62,228 bases of DNA from Desulfurococcus sp. (GTDB lineage Archaea > Thermoproteota > Thermoprotei_A > Sulfolobales > Desulfurococcaceae): positions 1 to 62,228 of the forward strand of contig JAPNUX010000002.1 of NCBI GenBank assembly GCA_026626905.1. The letters run 5' to 3'. Below, piece after piece: positions 17,559-56,056 of this stretch (position 1 is its first letter; every line of letters starts with the position of its first letter). Both the position numbers and the translations under genes were made by a program. The notes under the pieces were generated by a model. The model worked only from the letters and a program-made list of their open reading frames with translations, was not told the DNA's origin and searched no databases.

Positions 17559-19769
17559 ATGGTTAGATACAAGCAGACAGCTGAAGTGTTAAGGCTCATG
17601 AAGAACGTTGAGCAGATTAGGAATATAGGTATAACCGCTCACGTAGACCACGGTAAGACAACTCTATCCGACTCTCTGTTAAGTGCTGCAGGACTACTCT
17701 CCGAGAAGGTGGCTGGTCAAGCACTAGCCCTCGACTACCTTGATGTAGAGCAGAAGAGGCAGATGACTGTTAAAGCAGCTAACGTTAGCCTCTACCACGA
17801 GTACAAGGGTAAACCATACCTTGTAAACCTGATAGATACGCCGGGACACGTGGACTTCCAGTCGAAGACTATCAGAGCCCTTCGCGTTATAGATGGAGCA
17901 ATAGTAGTAGTAGACGCTGTGGAAGGTGTTATGACTCAGACAGAAATGTATCTACGTGTAGCTTTAGAGGAGAGGGTTCGCCCAATACTCTTCATAAACA
18001 AGATTGATAGGTTAATTAAGGAGCTACGGCTCTCACCAAGCGAGATACAACAAAGACTAGTTCAGATAGTTAAGGATATCAATACGCTTATAGCTAACTA
18101 CGCGGACAAGGAGTTCCAGAAGACATGGCTACTAGACCCCATGAAGGGCCAGGTAGCATTTGGTTCGGCGAGAGACCGCTGGGGTCTCACAATACCCCTG
18201 GTACAGCAGAAGGGGATTAAATTCTCCGATATAATTGATACCTACAATAGAGGCAAGGATGCTATTGCAGAGCTACAGAAGGTCGCGCCTCTTCACGAGG
18301 CAATACTCGACATGGTAGTTAAGTACGTGCCTAACCCAAGGGAGGCTCAGAGATACAGGATCCAGAAGATATGGCATGGAGACCTCAACCATGAAGTAGC
18401 AAAGTACATGATTGAAGCTGACCCGAATGGCCCGCTAGTAATGCTTGTAAACGATATTAGAGTTGACCCGCACGCCGGCTTAGTTGCCACTGGGAGAATA
18501 TACTCGGGTACTCTTAGAGCTGGGGATGAAGTATGGCTGGTTAATGCTAGATCCCCTCAGAGGGTTCTCCAAGTAAGCTTGTACATGGGGCCCTACAGAG
18601 AGCTGGCTGATGAGATCGCAGCAGGCAACATAGCTGCAGCACTAGGCTTAGATAAAGCGAGGTCAGGTGAAACCGTTGTCTCGCTAAAGTACAAGGATTC
18701 CATGACGCCATTCGAGAGGCTGAGAATGATCACGGAGTCTGTTGTCACAGTAGCAATAGAACCAAAGAACCCGCAGCAGCTGACTAAGCTCATTGACTCA
18801 CTATACAAGCTACACCTAGAGGATCCAAGCTTAATCGTTAAGATTAACGAAGAGACAGGCGAGTACCTCCTCAGCGGTGTCGGCACGCTACACATTGAGA
18901 TCGCGCTCACCCTACTAAAAGATCTCTACGGGCTGGACGTCGTGGCTTCACCACCCGTCATAGTGTACAGGGAGACCATAAGAGAAGCTAGCAGAATATT
19001 CGAGGGTAAGTCACCTAACAAGCATAACAGGTTCTATATTAGCGTCTCACCACTAAACGAGGAAACCATTAGATTAATGAGTGAAGGCATAGTCACCGAG
19101 GACATGGATGCACGCGAGAGAGCAAAGATCCTGAGGGATCAAGCAGGCTGGGATGCTGATGAAGCAAGAAGAATTATGGCTATTGATGAAAACCTCAACA
19201 TCCTGATTGATCTAACCACTGGTGTACAGTACCTGAGGGAGGTTAGAGATACAGTAATCCAGGGCTTCAGGCTAGCGATGAGGGAGGGCCCGCTGGCAAT
19301 GGAGCCAGTACGCGGTGTTAAAGTAATACTCCACGATGCAGTAATACACGAGGACCCGGCGCACAGGGGTCCAGCTCAGATATTCCCAGCTGTAAGAAAC
19401 GCTATATTCGTAGGCTTCCTGACAGCTAGGCCAACAATACTTGAGCCAATACTAAAGCTGGATATAAGAACCCCAGTTGAATACATAGGTAATGTTTCAA
19501 CAGTAATCACTAAGAAGAGAGGAAAACTCATAGAGGTCCAGCAGATGGAGGCAGGGGCGAGAATAGTAGCTGAGATACCAGTCTCAGAGTCCTTCGATAT
19601 AGCTGACATGCTGAGGAATGTAACAGCTGGTAAAGCGATATGGGGTCAGGACTTTAGCAGGTGGGCTCCAGTACCTGAAAGCATGCTAGCTGATCTAATA
19701 GCGAAGATTAGGACTAGGAAAGGATTAAAGCCTGAGCCACCGAAACCCGAGGACTTCATGTCGCCGTAA
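17559..19769 (+). CDS. fusA: Translation elongation factor 2
   Basis: 736 aa, full length. G domain: [15 protein letters not shown] (G1), the switch I region with [20 protein letters not shown] (G3), NKIDR (G4). Domains II-V follow. The diphthamide-modified His is expected at about residue 602 in [13 protein letters not shown]-2 catalyses ribosomal translocation. It is monocistronic with its own promoter. Confidence 0.97.
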
Positions 19770-51052: not shown

Positions 51053-54000
51053 GTGGCTGGTGGAGAAAGTGTAGAGGATATTTTAAGCAGGCTTAAAGAG
51101 TGCTCTGGGAGCAGAAACTTTAGGGTTAAAGCAGCTAGCATAATTGAAAGTATAGCCTTAAAGCTTGGTTTACCAGTAGAGGGCTCCGAGTATACTTTAA
51201 TATCTAGTACTAGAGTTGACTCTCCCTTCACCCACATCATAGTGGTGTACGAGGCTACAGAAGAACTCTCAGGAGACCTTAACACTGCAGAGGCTGTTGA
51301 AAGGATTGCAGAGCGTATTCTAAGGAATACTGGAGTTAAAGAGCATGAGAGACCTCTACTAGTTATTCTAGGCAGTAGAGTAGTGTTCGCTAGATACGAC
51401 TCTAAGAGTAAGCGCTGGGTGCTTAAAGGACCCTACGACCTCGGAAGACGCTCCCTCCTAATGCTTCTCACAGCTCTTAGAAGCCTCAAGGGGAGAAGGC
51501 TGTCAGTAGATGAATTACTCGAAGACTTTGGGTCTACAAGCCCTCTCACCAAGCGTGCTGTAAGAGTACTCTACGAGAAGCTCACAGAGTCGAATAACCA
51601 GGAGACTAGAGGACTCCTCGAGCACTGGAGGAAAACGTCTCCTCAAGCTAATATCCTACGTGCATCCAGGGGTCTCGAGGAGCTAAGGGATCTCTACGGT
51701 ATAGAGGGTAGAGTAGACTATGAAGCCCTCTTACTCTCAGTCTACACCTACTACGCTTTCCTCATGAAACTGCTAGCAGCAAGCGTAGCATATCCTTACG
51801 GTACAGGTAGGTACCTGGAGTCATATGTGGATGTGCTTGAAGAAGCCTACGCGAGCGGGTTAAACACCTTCAAGAAGCTCTTAATGGAGCTTGAGAGCGG
51901 AGTGTTATTCAAGAGCATCCTGAACATAGCAAACTACAGTGGAGACAGCTTCACCTCATGGTATCTCGAGGAGCTTGATGAAGAACTCGCTGAAGTATTA
52001 ATCACTATAGCTAGGAGGCTCTCTGAGTATGAGCCTGCAGCCATGGTACTAGATTTAGAGTACCCGAGAGACTTGTTGAAGGAGTTGTACCAGAACCTTG
52101 TGCCAAGAGAGGTTAGACGTAGTTTAGGTGAATACTATACTCCAGACTGGCTAGCCGATCTTGTTTTAAGCGAAGCAGGAATAACAGTTGAGAATTTTGA
52201 GAAGCTGGCTGAAGAGAGAGGAGACCCGCTGGCACCATTGAATCTGAGGATCCTGGATCCAGCATGTGGCTCCGGCACCTTCCTGATCCTGGCAGTGAAG
52301 AAGCTTAGAGAATACGCTGAGAAGCAGGGTTTAGAGGACCACTTAGCCGGCTACCTACCAAGGAGTGTTGTAGGCTTTGATTTAAACCCGCTTGCAGTGC
52401 TAGCAGCTAGAACAAACTACCTGCTTGTAGTAGCCGACCTCCTGCCATTTCAAGAACCCTTTGAAATACCAGTGTACTTAGCAGATCCTTTGAGTGTTGA
52501 AGTTAAAGTAGACTCATCTAGAGGTGTATATGTGGTTAGAACACTGCTAGGAGAGCTAGTACTACCAGTTAAAGCTGGGGATAAAGAGTTCTTGAGGAAG
52601 CTAGTTAATGCTGTAGCTGAATGCATGAGAGTAGAATGCAGGGTAGAAGAGTTCAAGGAGGTAGCTGAAAGGGGATTCAATCTCAGTGAAAACGAGGTAC
52701 AGCTGGTAGCAGGCTTCTACAGCTTTCTCTTAAAGCTTGAAGACAGTGAAAGAGACTCCATGCTGAGAAGTATACTAGCTCTCCTCGCTGCGGGCTCCTA
52801 TAAGGGATTCGACTATGTTATCGGTAATCCACCATGGGTGAACTGGGAGAAGCTGCCTTTAGAGTATAGGAGGAGCTCGAAGACCCTGTGGGAGAGCTAC
52901 GGGCTATTGAAGTCGTCAGGTAGAGCAAGGCTTGGTAGAGTTAAGAGAGATATCTCCATGCTATTTCTAGCGAGAAGCCTAGACTCGTATGTAAGGGAGA
53001 AAGGGGTACTGGCATTCCTAGTACCCTTCTCAGTCTTTAAGTCTCAGGCTGGAGCCGGCTTGAGGGGGTTCCTGGCGAGTAGAGGTAGGATCCTGAGGAT
53101 CCATGACCTCGTCGAGCTCACCCCCTTCGAGAATGCAGTCAACATGACCTCTCTAATCGTAGTGGAGAAGGAGGGGGAGACTAGGTTTCCAGTGCCATGC
53201 GTGCTGTGGCGTAGTTCAAGGAGAATAAGGAGAGATGCAAGCCTGGAGGAGGCTGTAGAAGCTTGCAGGAGGCTTAGTGTAGCTGTCATCCCAGTGAGCA
53301 GAAGGGATCCTGGGAGCCCCTGGATGGAGGTATCCTGGAGAGCCTACAGAACGTTGAAGAAGATTACTGGTTCAACCCCATGGTATAAAGCTTATGAAGG
53401 CGTGAATACAGCCCTCAACCAAGTCTACTGGATTAAAGTACTCTCAGAGGTATCAAGCAACCTCCTGATCGTCACGAATCCACCACTACCCGGCCAGAAG
53501 AAGAAGGTTAAACAGGTAGAGCAGGTAGTAGAGAGAGACCTAGTCTACCCGCTGGTTAGAGGTAGAAGTATTAGGAGATGGCTTGTAGAGAGGATGAGCG
53601 AGTGGATCATCATCCCCCACGACCCGGTATCAGGGAAGCCTATACCTGAAGACGTATTGAAAGCCGAGTACCCTAGAACCTACGAGTACCTCGCTAGCTT
53701 CAAGGAGGAATTGGAGGATAGATCCATTCACAAGCTTTGGGGTAGAGGAAAGCCATTCTACACTCTCTACGATATAGGAGGCTACACGTTCAAACCCTAC
53801 AAGGTTGCCTGGAAGTATATTGCCGGGGGAGTCTCAGGTAAAGCTAGGTTCTCGGCAGCCGTCCTAGAGCCTGTAAGCGACCAGTATGTAGGGGTGAAAA
53901 CCGTTATCCCTAATGAGAAGCTAGTTATAGTTCCACTAGAGGATAGAAGCGAAGCCTACTACCTTGCAGGAATCCTTAACTCCTCACCTATAATACTGCT

Positions 54001-54265
54001 CGTATCATCCTACGCTCTAGGAACAGCAATCTCAACACACATCCTAGAGTACATTAGAGTACCAAAGTATGATCCAGGCGACCCACTACACCGGAAGCTA
54101 AGCATGCTATCAGAAGAGGCGCACAAGGTAGCTAGACTAATCCACGGGAAGGATAGAGCAAACCTGAAGAACAAGCTCAAGAGAATTGAAGCTGAAATAG
54201 ATAGCATTACTGCCCAGCTCTACAATATAACAGAAAAAGAACTTAGAGACATTATCTCCCTTTAA
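51053..54265 (+). CDS. Type IIG-like (Eco57I-class) adenine-specific DNA methyltransferase
   Basis: 1070 aa. GTG start about eight bases after GGTG. The N-terminal 180 residues could be a degenerate nuclease domain: VDSPFTHIIVVYEAT resembles the D-x(n)-ExK core but has E-A-T rather than ExK. A helical segment leads to the N6-adenine methyltransferase domain: SLGEYYTPDWLADLVL, motif I DPACGSGTFL from D402, and motif IV NPPWVNW from N592. The C-terminal 400 residues (VRGRSIRRWLVERM, then LAGILNSSPIILLVSSYAL) are a target-recognition region as in Eco57I/TaqI-type enzymes. It probably protects DNA against the nuclease at 54913, or is a cut-and-methylate enzyme with a weakened nuclease. Codon use resembles its neighbours. 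Confidence 0.82.
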   Translation: MAGGESVEDILSRLKECSGSRNFRVKAASIIESIALKLGLPVEGSEYTLISSTRVDSPFTHIIVVYEATEELSGDLNTAEAVERIAERILRNTGVKEHERPLLVILGSRVVFARYDSKSKRWVLKGPYDLGRRSLLMLLTALRSLKGRRLSVDELLEDFGSTSPLTKRAVRVLYEKLTESNNQETRGLLEHWRKTSPQANILRASRGLEELRDLYGIEGRVDYEALLLSVYTYYAFLMKLLAASVAYPYGTGRYLESYVDVLEEAYASGLNTFKKLLMELESGVLFKSILNIANYSGDSFTSWYLEELDEELAEVLITIARRLSEYEPAAMVLDLEYPRDLLKELYQNLVPREVRRSLGEYYTPDWLADLVLSEAGITVENFEKLAEERGDPLAPLNLRILDPACGSGTFLILAVKKLREYAEKQGLEDHLAGYLPRSVVGFDLNPLAVLAARTNYLLVVADLLPFQEPFEIPVYLADPLSVEVKVDSSRGVYVVRTLLGELVLPVKAGDKEFLRKLVNAVAECMRVECRVEEFKEVAERGFNLSENEVQLVAGFYSFLLKLEDSERDSMLRSILALLAAGSYKGFDYVIGNPPWVNWEKLPLEYRRSSKTLWESYGLLKSSGRARLGRVKRDISMLFLARSLDSYVREKGVLAFLVPFSVFKSQAGAGLRGFLASRGRILRIHDLVELTPFENAVNMTSLIVVEKEGETRFPVPCVLWRSSRRIRRDASLEEAVEACRRLSVAVIPVSRRDPGSPWMEVSWRAYRTLKKITGSTPWYKAYEGVNTALNQVYWIKVLSEVSSNLLIVTNPPLPGQKKKVKQVEQVVERDLVYPLVRGRSIRRWLVERMSEWIIIPHDPVSGKPIPEDVLKAEYPRTYEYLASFKEELEDRSIHKLWGRGKPFYTLYDIGGYTFKPYKVAWKYIAGGVSGKARFSAAVLEPVSDQYVGVKTVIPNEKLVIVPLEDRSEAYYLAGILNSSPIILLVSSYALGTAISTHILEYIRVPKYDPGDPLHRKLSMLSEEAHKVARLIHGKDRANLKNKLKRIEAEIDSITAQLYNITEKELRDIISL

Positions 54266-54333
54266 GTCTTCTCTGATTGCTTCTAGTCGTTAATTTTCAT
54301 TGAGCCTATTGAAGATCAACCATTAAATAGTGT

Positions 54334-54483
54334 TTGAATAAGCTAAGATACCAGGAGAAGCTGAAGACCCAATACAACCTAGAAGAAGTGAAAAAGAAGA
54401 ATGTGAGAGAACTCAACATGCTACTCAGCGAGAATCCAATCATGATATCATACATTGAGGTATTCGAGAAGATAAACCACTAG
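54334..54483 (+). CDS. Short ORF, possible gene remnant (49 aa)
   Basis: TTG 54334 to TAG 54483, reading MNKLRYQEKLKTQYNLEE at the start and YIEVFEKINH at the end. The middle is charged and helical. A TATA-like CATTAAATAG lies at 54321-54330 just upstream. It could be a genuine small protein, or the residue of a larger one; nothing in it is recognised. Low confidence because there is no Shine-Dalgarno sequence. Confidence 0.25.
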   Translation: MNKLRYQEKLKTQYNLEEVKKKNVRELNMLLSENPIMISYIEVFEKINH

Positions 54484-54508
54484 TCTCTTCCTCTATTAAT
54501 TCAAATTC

Positions 54509-54530
54509 GAATTCGATTCAAATCGAATTC
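54509..54530. repeat. 22-bp palindrome GAATTCGATT-CA-AATCGAATTC
   Basis: Perfect 10-bp inverted arms around a 2-bp centre. It is flanked by two direct copies of AATTCAAATT at 54498-54507 and 54526-54535, the second overlapping the right arm. Could be an operator, a recombinase site or a terminus of a lost element. Confidence 0.6.
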
Positions 54531-54538
54531 AAATTTCA

Positions 54539-54584
54539 GCCCGTGGAGATTCTATTTTAGCCCGTGTTCTACGGGCAAGCCCGT
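54539..54584. repeat. GCCCGT triplicate with hairpin
   Basis: GCCCGT occurs at 54539-54544, 54560-54565 and 54579-54584. The middle copy pairs with ACGGGC at 54571-54576 to give a 6-bp stem and 5-nt loop, and the third copy could compete for the same ACGGGC. Confidence 0.5.
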
Positions 54585-54912
54585 TAAAGTTGCATGAGTT
54601 TCTTTTGCAACCAGAAGGAGCTTGTAAAGTAAAGATGAGCTGAGAATAAGATTAGGGTAGGGTTTCCTTAGAGTGTATTCTTCACTACCCCTGTTATCTC
54701 TTTTCACTCCTCAACACTACATTACTGCAGTGATCCCGAGTCGCCTATCAATATGCTCCTTTCTTATCTTTGACTTACTATCACCATCATCTTCCTCAAT
54801 ACTTCTTAATCCATGGGATGTTGGCTATATCTGGGGCATTCAAGGGCATGCAGTAATCGTTGAAGTAAAGTGTTAAAAATTATATTATAGCGTATAGCAC
54901 TCTACGAGTTTA

Positions 54913-55497
54913 GTGGTAGATATAGAGAATTCGGGTAGACTTAAAGAGTTATTGAAAGCCCTCTCTGAAGACTATGCTAATGGCAAGTTCACTCCAATCC
55001 TAGAAGCCGATGTAGTCGGCTACCTCTACTACCTGTGGATTTCCAAGTTCGATAATGCAAGCAAGGTTCACCTGAATACACGCATCTGCGGTCTAGTAGG
55101 TAAGAGAAGAAAGTTCGACTTTGTAGCCGGCGATGTAAAAAGTGGGGAGCTCTTAAAACTCAGTAATGAGGAGTTCCCGTGCGTAGATAAGCCCTGGCTC
55201 GTCATCGAAGTTAAATCATTCCTCAATGGCTTCAAGGGCTCACAGCTCAAAAAACGCTACCGTTATGTTGAAGGCGACCTTCGAAAACTAGCAAAGTTAG
55301 GAGAAACATCGAATGAGAGGTACATCCTGTTCTTCGATGAACGTAACTACCTTGAAAGAATAGATAAGAAAAGAAGATCTTCGAGAATAAATAGCATCGT
55401 AGAGCTCCGTAATAAACTAGACTCTAATATTAAGATAATTCACGTGAAGACGAAGAAAGAGAAAGACAAGAAAGTACTCACGTGGAATTTCCTTTAG
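54913..55497 (+). CDS. PD-(D/E)XK-like nuclease, probable restriction endonuclease partner
   Basis: 194 aa, GTG start. A TATA-like AATTATATTATAG at 54878-54890 lies about 25 bp upstream, so the mRNA would be leaderless. The residues fit the PD-(D/E)XK core: E31 in LEADVVGYLYYLW, D69 in RRKFDFVAGD, and E99-V-K101 in PWLVIEVKSF, each at the end or start of a strand. The C-terminal half is rich in Lys and Arg (KKRYRYVEGDLRKLAKLG), suitable for DNA binding. No family name is certain. Position beyond the methyltransferase suggests the cutting half of a restriction-modification pair; a solitary defence nuclease is the alternative. Confidence 0.6.
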   Translation: MVDIENSGRLKELLKALSEDYANGKFTPILEADVVGYLYYLWISKFDNASKVHLNTRICGLVGKRRKFDFVAGDVKSGELLKLSNEEFPCVDKPWLVIEVKSFLNGFKGSQLKKRYRYVEGDLRKLAKLGETSNERYILFFDERNYLERIDKKRRSSRINSIVELRNKLDSNIKIIHVKTKKEKDKKVLTWNFL

Positions 55498-55665
55498 CGT
55501 GGTTCGAAGCGGAGGGAAAGGGCATCTTAGGGTTATACCCTTAAAATTTTGCAGGGCCGGCGGGTTCAGAGATTTTTAAGGGTATGTATACCAGAGAAGC
55601 CTCTGTATAAACCTTGAACAATCTCTGAGATACTCGTAAGGAATTTCAATAATATAACTCCCCTT
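55498..55665. repeat. Spacer with a 12-bp inverted repeat (55535-55546 / 55574-55585)
   Basis: ATACCCTTAAAA and TTTTAAGGGTAT are perfect inverted copies 27 bp apart. The spacer is GC-rich (GGGCCGGCGGGTT). This lies 38 bp after the nuclease stop. It could be a terminator, an operator or an element end. Nothing else is seen in the 168 bp. Confidence 0.5.
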
Positions 55666-55959
55666 CTAGATGCAGTTTTGTTCTCTTAGTGTTTTCAGGT
55701 ATTCTGGGTATGTGTGGTCTGCTTCGCTGAGTAGGTCTTCGTATCTAGCCTCACTTACTTTTAGTTCTCTGAAGCGGTTTTGCAGGAATCTAGCTACTTC
55801 TCCCCCTAAAAGTAGACAAGCCTCTGGGTATCCACTCCTATACCTGACTTCCCGGTTTAAAGCTTCAATCCTAACCATCTCCTGCCAAGAACTACTAGCT
55901 GAATCTAAGAGCAAGCCCCAAAGAGTTCCTGGAACCCCTATGAAACAAGAACTACGTTA
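55666..55959 (-). pseudogene. Probable N-terminally truncated gene remnant
   Basis: On the minus strand a coding-like frame runs from a stop just beyond 55959 to TAG at 55666. The first TTG (55914) gives 82 aa, but protein-like sequence (FIGVPGTLWGLLLDSASSS) continues upstream without any start codon. It has predicted helices (VARFLQNRFREL, YEDLLSEADHTYPEYLKTL). I recognise no family; it resembles the C-terminal half of small helical proteins common in hyperthermophilic Crenarchaeota. The lack of start codon suggests that the 5' part was lost, next to the 3' end of tRNA-Arg. Confidence 0.4.
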
Positions 55960-55981
55960 AATCTCTCTATAGGAGGGTTAA

Positions 55982-56056
55982 CGGGCCCGCCGGGATTTGA
56001 ACCCGGGTTCTCCGGCTCCGCAGGCCGGCGCCTTATCCTGGCTAGGCGACGGGCCC
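55982..56056 (-). tRNA. tRNA-Arg(GCG)
   Basis: Minus strand: acceptor GGGCCCG/CGGGCCC, D arm GCCTAGCCAGGATAAGGC, anticodon stem GCCGG/CCGG around CTGCGGA (anticodon GCG), T arm CCGGG-TTCAAAT-CCCGG, discriminator G. 75 nt, no intron. Its 3' end faces the accessory tract, the orientation expected if an integrase once used it as an attachment site. Confidence 0.93.

What the first reader, a model, noticed from the sequence alone, without database searches (positions are those of the whole stretch)
51053..55980. Restriction-modification or defence island next to tRNA-Arg
A 1070-aa adenine methyltransferase with a degenerate-looking N-terminal nuclease motif (E-A-T instead of ExK) is followed, after decayed DNA, by a stand-alone PD-(D/E)XK-like nuclease with intact E31, D69, E99, K101. 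The intact nuclease may replace the lost one, giving a split type IIG-derived system. It lies at the 3' side of a tRNA gene, a usual site for integrating elements.
Basis: partly seen in the sequence, partly recalled or inferred. Interest (0 to 1): 0.6.

Follow-up and report, generated by a model that had tools for sequence, protein, structure and literature searches.

The report
Archaeal restriction enzyme reduced to methyltransferase
In this heat-loving archaeon a fused DNA-cutting and DNA-marking enzyme appears to have lost its cutting part and kept its marking part; the separate nuclease gene beside it is probably an unrelated neighbour, and the enzyme's relatives point to what may be an undescribed two-gene defence system.

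Summary
ORF 51053-54265 is a full-length type IIG restriction-methylation protein (PADLOC E=2.6e-293). Its N-terminal nuclease domain is decayed, but not as described: the relatives' E-Y-K is V65-Y66-E67, so the lost residue is the catalytic Glu (E65V), and the QxxxY motif is gone too. Decay is confined to that end: 21 of 34 family-conserved residues changed, against 8/107 (methyltransferase) and 5/60 (target-recognition region). It is probably a solitary N6-adenine methyltransferase.

The downstream nuclease (54913-55497) keeps E31/D69/E99/K101, but is unrelated to the lost domain and has one clear homologue in over 600 archaeal genomes. That homologue lies in a defence island without a methyltransferase beside it; its genome has two intact IIG enzymes elsewhere. 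"Split IIG system" is weakly supported. The site beside tRNA-Arg is variable among relatives, with no att repeat and no visible integrase.

Unexpectedly, 18 of 24 archaeal relatives' loci carry a BrxL gene abutting the IIG gene, with no PglZ found nearby. BrxL-linked enzymes all carry a C-terminal domain of about 130 residues that BrxL-less archaeal ones, including the window's, lack. The window genome has no BrxL. I found no description of this pair.

The parts
51053..54265 (+). type IIG-derived protein, 1070 aa: decayed N-terminal nuclease domain, N6-adenine MTase, target-recognition region
   Evidence: PADLOC PDLC03630 REase_MTase_IIG E=2.6e-293 over residues 15-1067; Pfam Eco57I; alignment with about 120 relatives
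51053..51427 (+). decayed PD-(D/E)XK nuclease domain (residues 1-125): D56 kept, E65V, K67E, Q84R, Y88R
   Evidence: 21/34 family-conserved residues changed; predicted secondary structure in the a-b-b-b-a-b order of the PD-(D/E)XK core
52043..53212 (+). methyltransferase domain (about residues 331-720), motifs DPACGSGTF (402) and NPPW (592) intact
   Evidence: 8/107 conserved residues changed, leaving out the variable linker 461-580
53213..54262 (+). target-recognition and C-terminal helical region (residues 721-1070); ends without the C-terminal domain of about 130 aa found in BrxL-linked relatives
   Evidence: 5/60 conserved residues changed; C-terminal tail 12 aa past the anchor against 129-162 aa in BrxL-linked relatives
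54266..54912 (.). AT-rich non-coding spacer (38% GC); no recognisable remnant of BrxL or another gene
54873..54888 (+). putative TATA box about 27 nt upstream of the nuclease GTG (leaderless start inferred)
   Evidence: sequence AAAAATTATATTATAG, read; inference
54913..55497 (+). stand-alone PD-(D/E)XK-like protein, 194 aa, E31-D69-E99-K101
   Evidence: 57% identity to the G310 homologue, catalytic residues invariant; AF2 model pLDDT 77.5; Foldseek best hits include BstEII, NucC and XisH, none significant
55982..56056 (-). tRNA-Arg(GCG), 3' end facing the island
   Evidence: ARAGORN; same neighbour order in congeners

Best explanation
The large protein is a solitary N6-adenine methyltransferase. 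It descends from a fused type IIG (probably IIL-like, one-strand-modifying) restriction-methylation enzyme of a clade in which the enzyme is usually paired with a BrxL ATPase. In this lineage the restriction side has gone: the N-terminal PD-(D/E)XK domain has lost its catalytic Glu, its QxxxY motif and most conserved positions, and the C-terminal domain and the brxL gene are absent. SAM binding, catalysis and target recognition are conserved, so the protein should still methylate its motif (inferred). A long-lived solitary methyltransferase could mark the host genome, affect transcription or replication, or shield DNA from incoming enzymes of the same specificity; I cannot choose between these. 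The 194-aa PD-(D/E)XK-like protein downstream is most likely an independent defence nuclease with its own promoter, placed in the same variable site next to tRNA-Arg. Shown: homology, the pattern of decay, absence of BrxL, locus variability. Inferred: methylation, loss of cleavage, independence of the nuclease.
For: Full-length IIG match. Of 101 relatives readable at both positions, 99 have D...Ex(K/E), one DxK, one LxK; the window has VxE. Residues 1-125: 21/34 conserved positions changed, against 8/107 in the MTase (Fisher p=3e-10) and 5/60 in the TRD region (p=5e-8). In a leave-one-out table no other close relative lost more than 5 of about 30 there, while the window lost 18/31. Terminal branch for the nuclease domain 1.46 against a median of 0.16 (9x); for the MTase 0.73 against 0.31 (2.4x). 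Two other fused MTases of the same genome keep D...ExK (L196 DMDLFGRVIFEFK, L197 DMVFHGKLIVEIK). No BrxL found in the genome. The nuclease is unrelated to the lost domain and its homologue is not next to an IIG gene. Same-genus genomes carry different cargo at the same site.
Against: No methylome or expression data. The MTase branch is itself longer than in relatives, so some relaxation there cannot be excluded. The pattern rests on one sequence, with no close orthologue for a dN/dS test. The nuclease lies on the same strand within 650 bp and could be co-selected. Foldseek with the decayed domain found no significant PDB hit, so its nuclease ancestry rests on the family motif and topology.
Confidence: 0.68

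Rival explanations
1. Split type II system: the stand-alone nuclease has taken over cleavage, guided or limited by the methylation from the IIG-derived protein.
For: Same strand, 650 bp apart; nuclease catalytic residues intact; MTase conserved while its nuclease domain decayed; both genomes known to carry the nuclease also carry an IIG-family enzyme, against 25/398 phylum genomes.
Against: Not related to the lost domain; absent from every other IIG locus; its homologue in G310 is far from any IIG gene, and the two IIG enzymes there have intact nuclease domains; the spacer is non-coding and the nuclease seems to have its own promoter.
Confidence: 0.14
2. Inactive relic: the whole gene is decaying after loss of restriction and happens to be still open.
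For: MTase terminal branch 2.4 times the median; nuclease domain, C-terminal domain and BrxL already lost.
Against: 3210 nt open; 99/107 MTase and 55/60 TRD family-conserved residues kept while 62% of nuclease-domain ones changed; motifs I and IV intact.
Confidence: 0.12
3. Two-component modification-dependent arrangement: the 194-aa nuclease is a type IV-like or abortive-infection effector that senses DNA modification, and the MTase provides or avoids the modification.
For: Nuclease family found in defence islands only (this window; G310 C17 with SNF2-NOV_C helicase, Mrr-TPR and AAA genes).
Against: No modification-reading domain recognised; no family match beyond chance; only two members known.
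Confidence: 0.06

Closest known systems
Type IIG/IIL fused restriction-methylation enzymes (TkoI/TkoII of Thermococcus kodakarensis, PMC8172983; MmeI)
   Same: One polypeptide with N-terminal PD-(D/E)XK-type domain, N6-adenine MTase and target recognition
   Different: Catalytic Glu and QxxxY motif of the nuclease domain lost; C-terminus ends early
PADLOC REase_MTase_IIG family PDLC03630
   Same: Aligned over nearly the whole length, E=2.6e-293
   Different: The window is one of two relatives read whose ExK glutamate is replaced by an aliphatic residue
BREX type 1/type 4 (PglX/BrxX + BrxL + PglZ + BrxC; PMC10164562, PMC12839542)
   Same: N6-adenine MTase; close relatives are followed by BrxL (TIGR02688 above cut-off), the short form without a C-terminal Lon domain as described for type 4
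   Different: IIG enzymes carry a nuclease domain; no PglZ found within 10 kb and no BrxC/PglZ profile among the ten large neighbours tested; the window genome lacks BrxL altogether
Orphan archaeal methyltransferases (PMC10609329)
   Same: Methyltransferase without its own nuclease
   Different: Those described are mostly simple type II MTases; this one is a IIG enzyme with a dead nuclease domain

Membership tests
Type IIG restriction enzyme | Fused nuclease, MTase and recognition regions in one polypeptide | tested here: met
Type IIG restriction enzyme | Catalytic D...(E/D)x(K/E) in the nuclease domain | tested here: not met
   D56 kept but V65 for Glu; 99/101 relatives have D...Ex(K/E)
Type IIG restriction enzyme | Cuts DNA near an unmethylated recognition site | not testable with these tools
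   needs purified protein
Solitary N6-adenine methyltransferase | MTase motifs I and IV intact and under constraint | tested here: met
   DPACGSGTF, NPPW; 8/107 conserved residues changed
Solitary N6-adenine methyltransferase | No cognate nuclease | tested here: inconclusive
   own domain dead; neighbouring nuclease unrelated and not co-conserved, but cognate function not excluded
BREX | PglZ and BrxC present | tested here: not met
   No PF08665 hit within 10 kb of the IIG-BrxL locus in 15 relatives' genomes; none of the annotated window ORFs is one; PglZ and BrxC were not searched for in the rest of the window genome
BREX | BrxL | tested here: not met
   absent from G000; present beside most close relatives
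PD-(D/E)XK nuclease (194-aa ORF) | E / D / ExK residues conserved on an a-b-b-b-a-b core | tested here: met
PD-(D/E)XK nuclease (194-aa ORF) | Significant match to a known nuclease family or fold | tested here: not met
   No family or PDB match beyond chance; best Foldseek hit BstEII E=0.05
tRNA-integrated mobile element | Integrase and direct repeat of the tRNA 3' end | tested here: not met
   longest direct match 10 bp; no integrase among nearby ORFs

The most novel reading that the evidence does not exclude
The window protein is a reduced member of an undescribed two-gene archaeal defence system: a type IIG nuclease-methyltransferase with a dedicated C-terminal domain (acidic linker plus beta-rich module) that docks an abutting BrxL ATPase, working without PglZ or BrxC. 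Lineages such as this one repeatedly lose BrxL and the docking domain together; here the nuclease is lost too, leaving a stand-alone genome methyltransferase.
Probability: 0.5. Interest if true: 0.7.

Novelty: new variant of a known kind. Interest (0 to 1): 0.48.

Why it matters
It is a clear natural case of a type IIG enzyme losing restriction while modification and recognition stay under constraint, which bears on how orphan methyltransferases arise. Its relatives link a nuclease-containing restriction enzyme directly to BrxL, the BREX ATPase whose role is unsettled. If that pair is functional it gives a two-protein, heat-stable system for asking what BrxL does without the rest of BREX.

Tried and rejected
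Nuclease relatives: genome contigs, viral contigs (single sequence and alignment), phages and plasmids gave none; the genome and viral scans used short exact patterns, so distant relatives could be missed. Weak order and class hits were aminotransferases or chance. Foldseek for the nuclease (PDB, BFVD) and for the decayed domain gave nothing significant. BrxL remnant in the spacers: best tblastn E=0.13, chance. The 47-aa open stretch at 54353-54481 has no relative in the loci held. Att site: none. Base composition as a sign of separate origin: GC3 of the nuclease gene (0.49) resembles its neighbours, so uninformative.

Full report
Observation. The window lies in an archaeal genome of 1.27 Mb (8 contigs, 99.9% complete); the relatives found and the neighbouring genes point to the Thermoproteota. 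ORF 51053-54265 encodes 1070 aa with Eco57I/N6_Mtase matches and a nearly full-length match to PADLOC's type IIG family PDLC03630 (E=2.6e-293). Downstream, 54913-55497 encodes 194 aa without a significant family match. tRNA-Arg(GCG) follows at 55982-56056 on the minus strand.

The nuclease domain is dead, but the register given was wrong. Relatives share RxDAxYGxxxxE(Y/F)(K/E)xP in the N-terminal domain. The window has D56 but V65-Y66-E67 in place of E-Y-K. E at the third position is common among relatives (31 ExE, 68 ExK), so the key loss is Glu65. Of 101 relatives readable at both positions, 99 have D...Ex(K/E), one DxK and one LxK. The motif-IV glutamine (Q84R) and the tyrosine four residues on (Y88R) are lost too. 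An AlphaFold model of the domain built on 57 relatives shows helix-strand-strand-strand-helix-strand, the PD-(D/E)XK core order; Foldseek found no significant PDB hit.

Decay is confined. Among positions at least 90% conserved in the archaeal relatives, the window has changed 21/34 in residues 1-125, 8/107 in the MTase blocks (331-460 and 581-720) and 5/60 after 720 (Fisher p = 3e-10 and 5e-8). In a leave-one-out table the other close relatives lost 0-5 of about 30 in the nuclease domain, the window 18/31. Terminal branch for the nuclease domain 1.46 against a median of 0.16, for the MTase 0.73 against 0.31. So the protein has been kept as a methyltransferase long enough for its nuclease domain to erode. 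The caveat is that the MTase too runs somewhat fast, and no close orthologue exists for dN/dS. As an internal control, two other fused methyltransferases of the same genome (L196, L197) keep D...ExK.

The stand-alone nuclease. E31, D69, E99 and K101 are invariant with the one clear homologue (G310, L069:10007-10615, 57% identity). The model (pLDDT 77.5, pTM 0.79, two-sequence alignment) has the expected element order. Foldseek's best PDB hits include BstEII, NucC and XisH, all at E > 0.05. It is not related to the IIG N-terminal domain (hhalign 0.1%). Searches of 197 order, 229 class and 398 phylum genomes (overlapping sets), plus phage, plasmid, viral and genome collections, gave only G310 as a true relative. 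In G310 it lies in a defence island (SNF2-NOV_C helicase, Mrr-TPR protein, AAA ATPase) without an MTase beside it; that genome's two IIG enzymes are on other contigs with intact EYK. No other IIG locus held encodes it. The split-system idea is therefore weakly supported; I leave it 14% because both nuclease-bearing genomes carry IIG-family enzymes.

Locus. In both same-genus genomes PSMB, tRNA-Arg and the GTPase gene keep their order, but the interval between tRNA and GTPase holds a 265-aa ORF (G030) or what looks like a toxin-antitoxin pair (G020, my reading of the sequences) instead of the window's genes. It is a variable site. There is no direct repeat of the tRNA 3' end over 10 bp and no integrase among nearby ORFs, so an integrated element is not shown.

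What the relatives revealed. Neighbourhood clustering showed a gene directly downstream of the IIG gene in most archaeal relatives; it is BrxL (TIGR02688 at 505-597 bits against a cut-off of 329; PF13337; PADLOC BrxL). Counting distinct archaeal loci with DNA downstream, 18 of 24 have BrxL abutting or overlapping the IIG frame, one has it in fragments (L210), five lack it (L006, L010, L150, L076, L083). No PglZ profile hit lies near any of 15 such loci, and ten large flanking ORFs matched no BrxC or PglZ model. BrxL-linked enzymes have 129-162 residues after a C-terminal anchor (16 of 16, plus the frame-split L078); BrxL-less archaeal ones, including the window, have 12-35. The extra segment is an acidic linker plus a probably beta-rich module (fold not predicted). 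In the MTase tree the BrxL-less members (L006, L010, L150, L173, window) sit beside BrxL-bearing ones, suggesting repeated joint loss. Because segment and gene are adjacent, single deletions could explain each joint loss without a functional link. Papers I searched restrict BrxL to BREX types 1 and 4 (PMC10164562, PMC12839542); searches for a IIG-BrxL pair found none, within an open-access library only.

Verdict. A solitary-methyltransferase derivative of a type IIG enzyme, next to an unrelated orphan PD-(D/E)XK-like gene at a variable tRNA-adjacent site. Moderately interesting in itself; the IIG-BrxL arrangement of its relatives is the more novel lead.

Noticed in passing
L203-L209, L211-L216, L072-L074, L077, L078 (e.g. 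L213:9641-14801): IIG REase-MTase gene immediately followed by a short BrxL ATPase gene in diverse archaea, without PglZ nearby: a possible undescribed two-gene defence system.
   Followed up: partly
C-termini of the IIG relatives, e.g. L073:9205-9624, L072:4859-5287: An acidic linker plus a module of roughly 100 aa is present in every BrxL-linked IIG enzyme and absent from BrxL-less archaeal ones; candidate BrxL docking domain.
   Followed up: partly
L077:9558-11495: BrxL reading frame of 646 aa with a C-terminal extension (HDRWVLS...) that looks like the HKD/PLD nuclease version reported for some BREX BrxL proteins.
   Followed up: no
L210:13498-13770 and 19081-19425: BrxL fragments about 5 kb apart downstream of an intact-looking IIG gene that lacks the C-terminal domain: interrupted BrxL.
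   Followed up: no
L069:8282-9205, L072:92-958, L215:13108-13950: A protein of about 300 aa found beside the orphan nuclease's homologue also occurs beside some IIG-BrxL loci; no Pfam match.
   Followed up: partly
L078:5962-9680: IIG reading frame split into three overlapping frames beside an intact BrxL: frameshifts or assembly errors.
   Followed up: no
L106:5839-9198: The only other relative with the ExK Glu replaced by an aliphatic residue (LYK): perhaps an independent nuclease-dead case.
   Followed up: no
window:49445-50988: The metallo-beta-lactamase-fold ORF and the LEA_2-domain ORF between the GTPase gene and the IIG gene had no match at this locus in the two same-genus genomes, so they also seem to belong to the variable segment.
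   Followed up: partly
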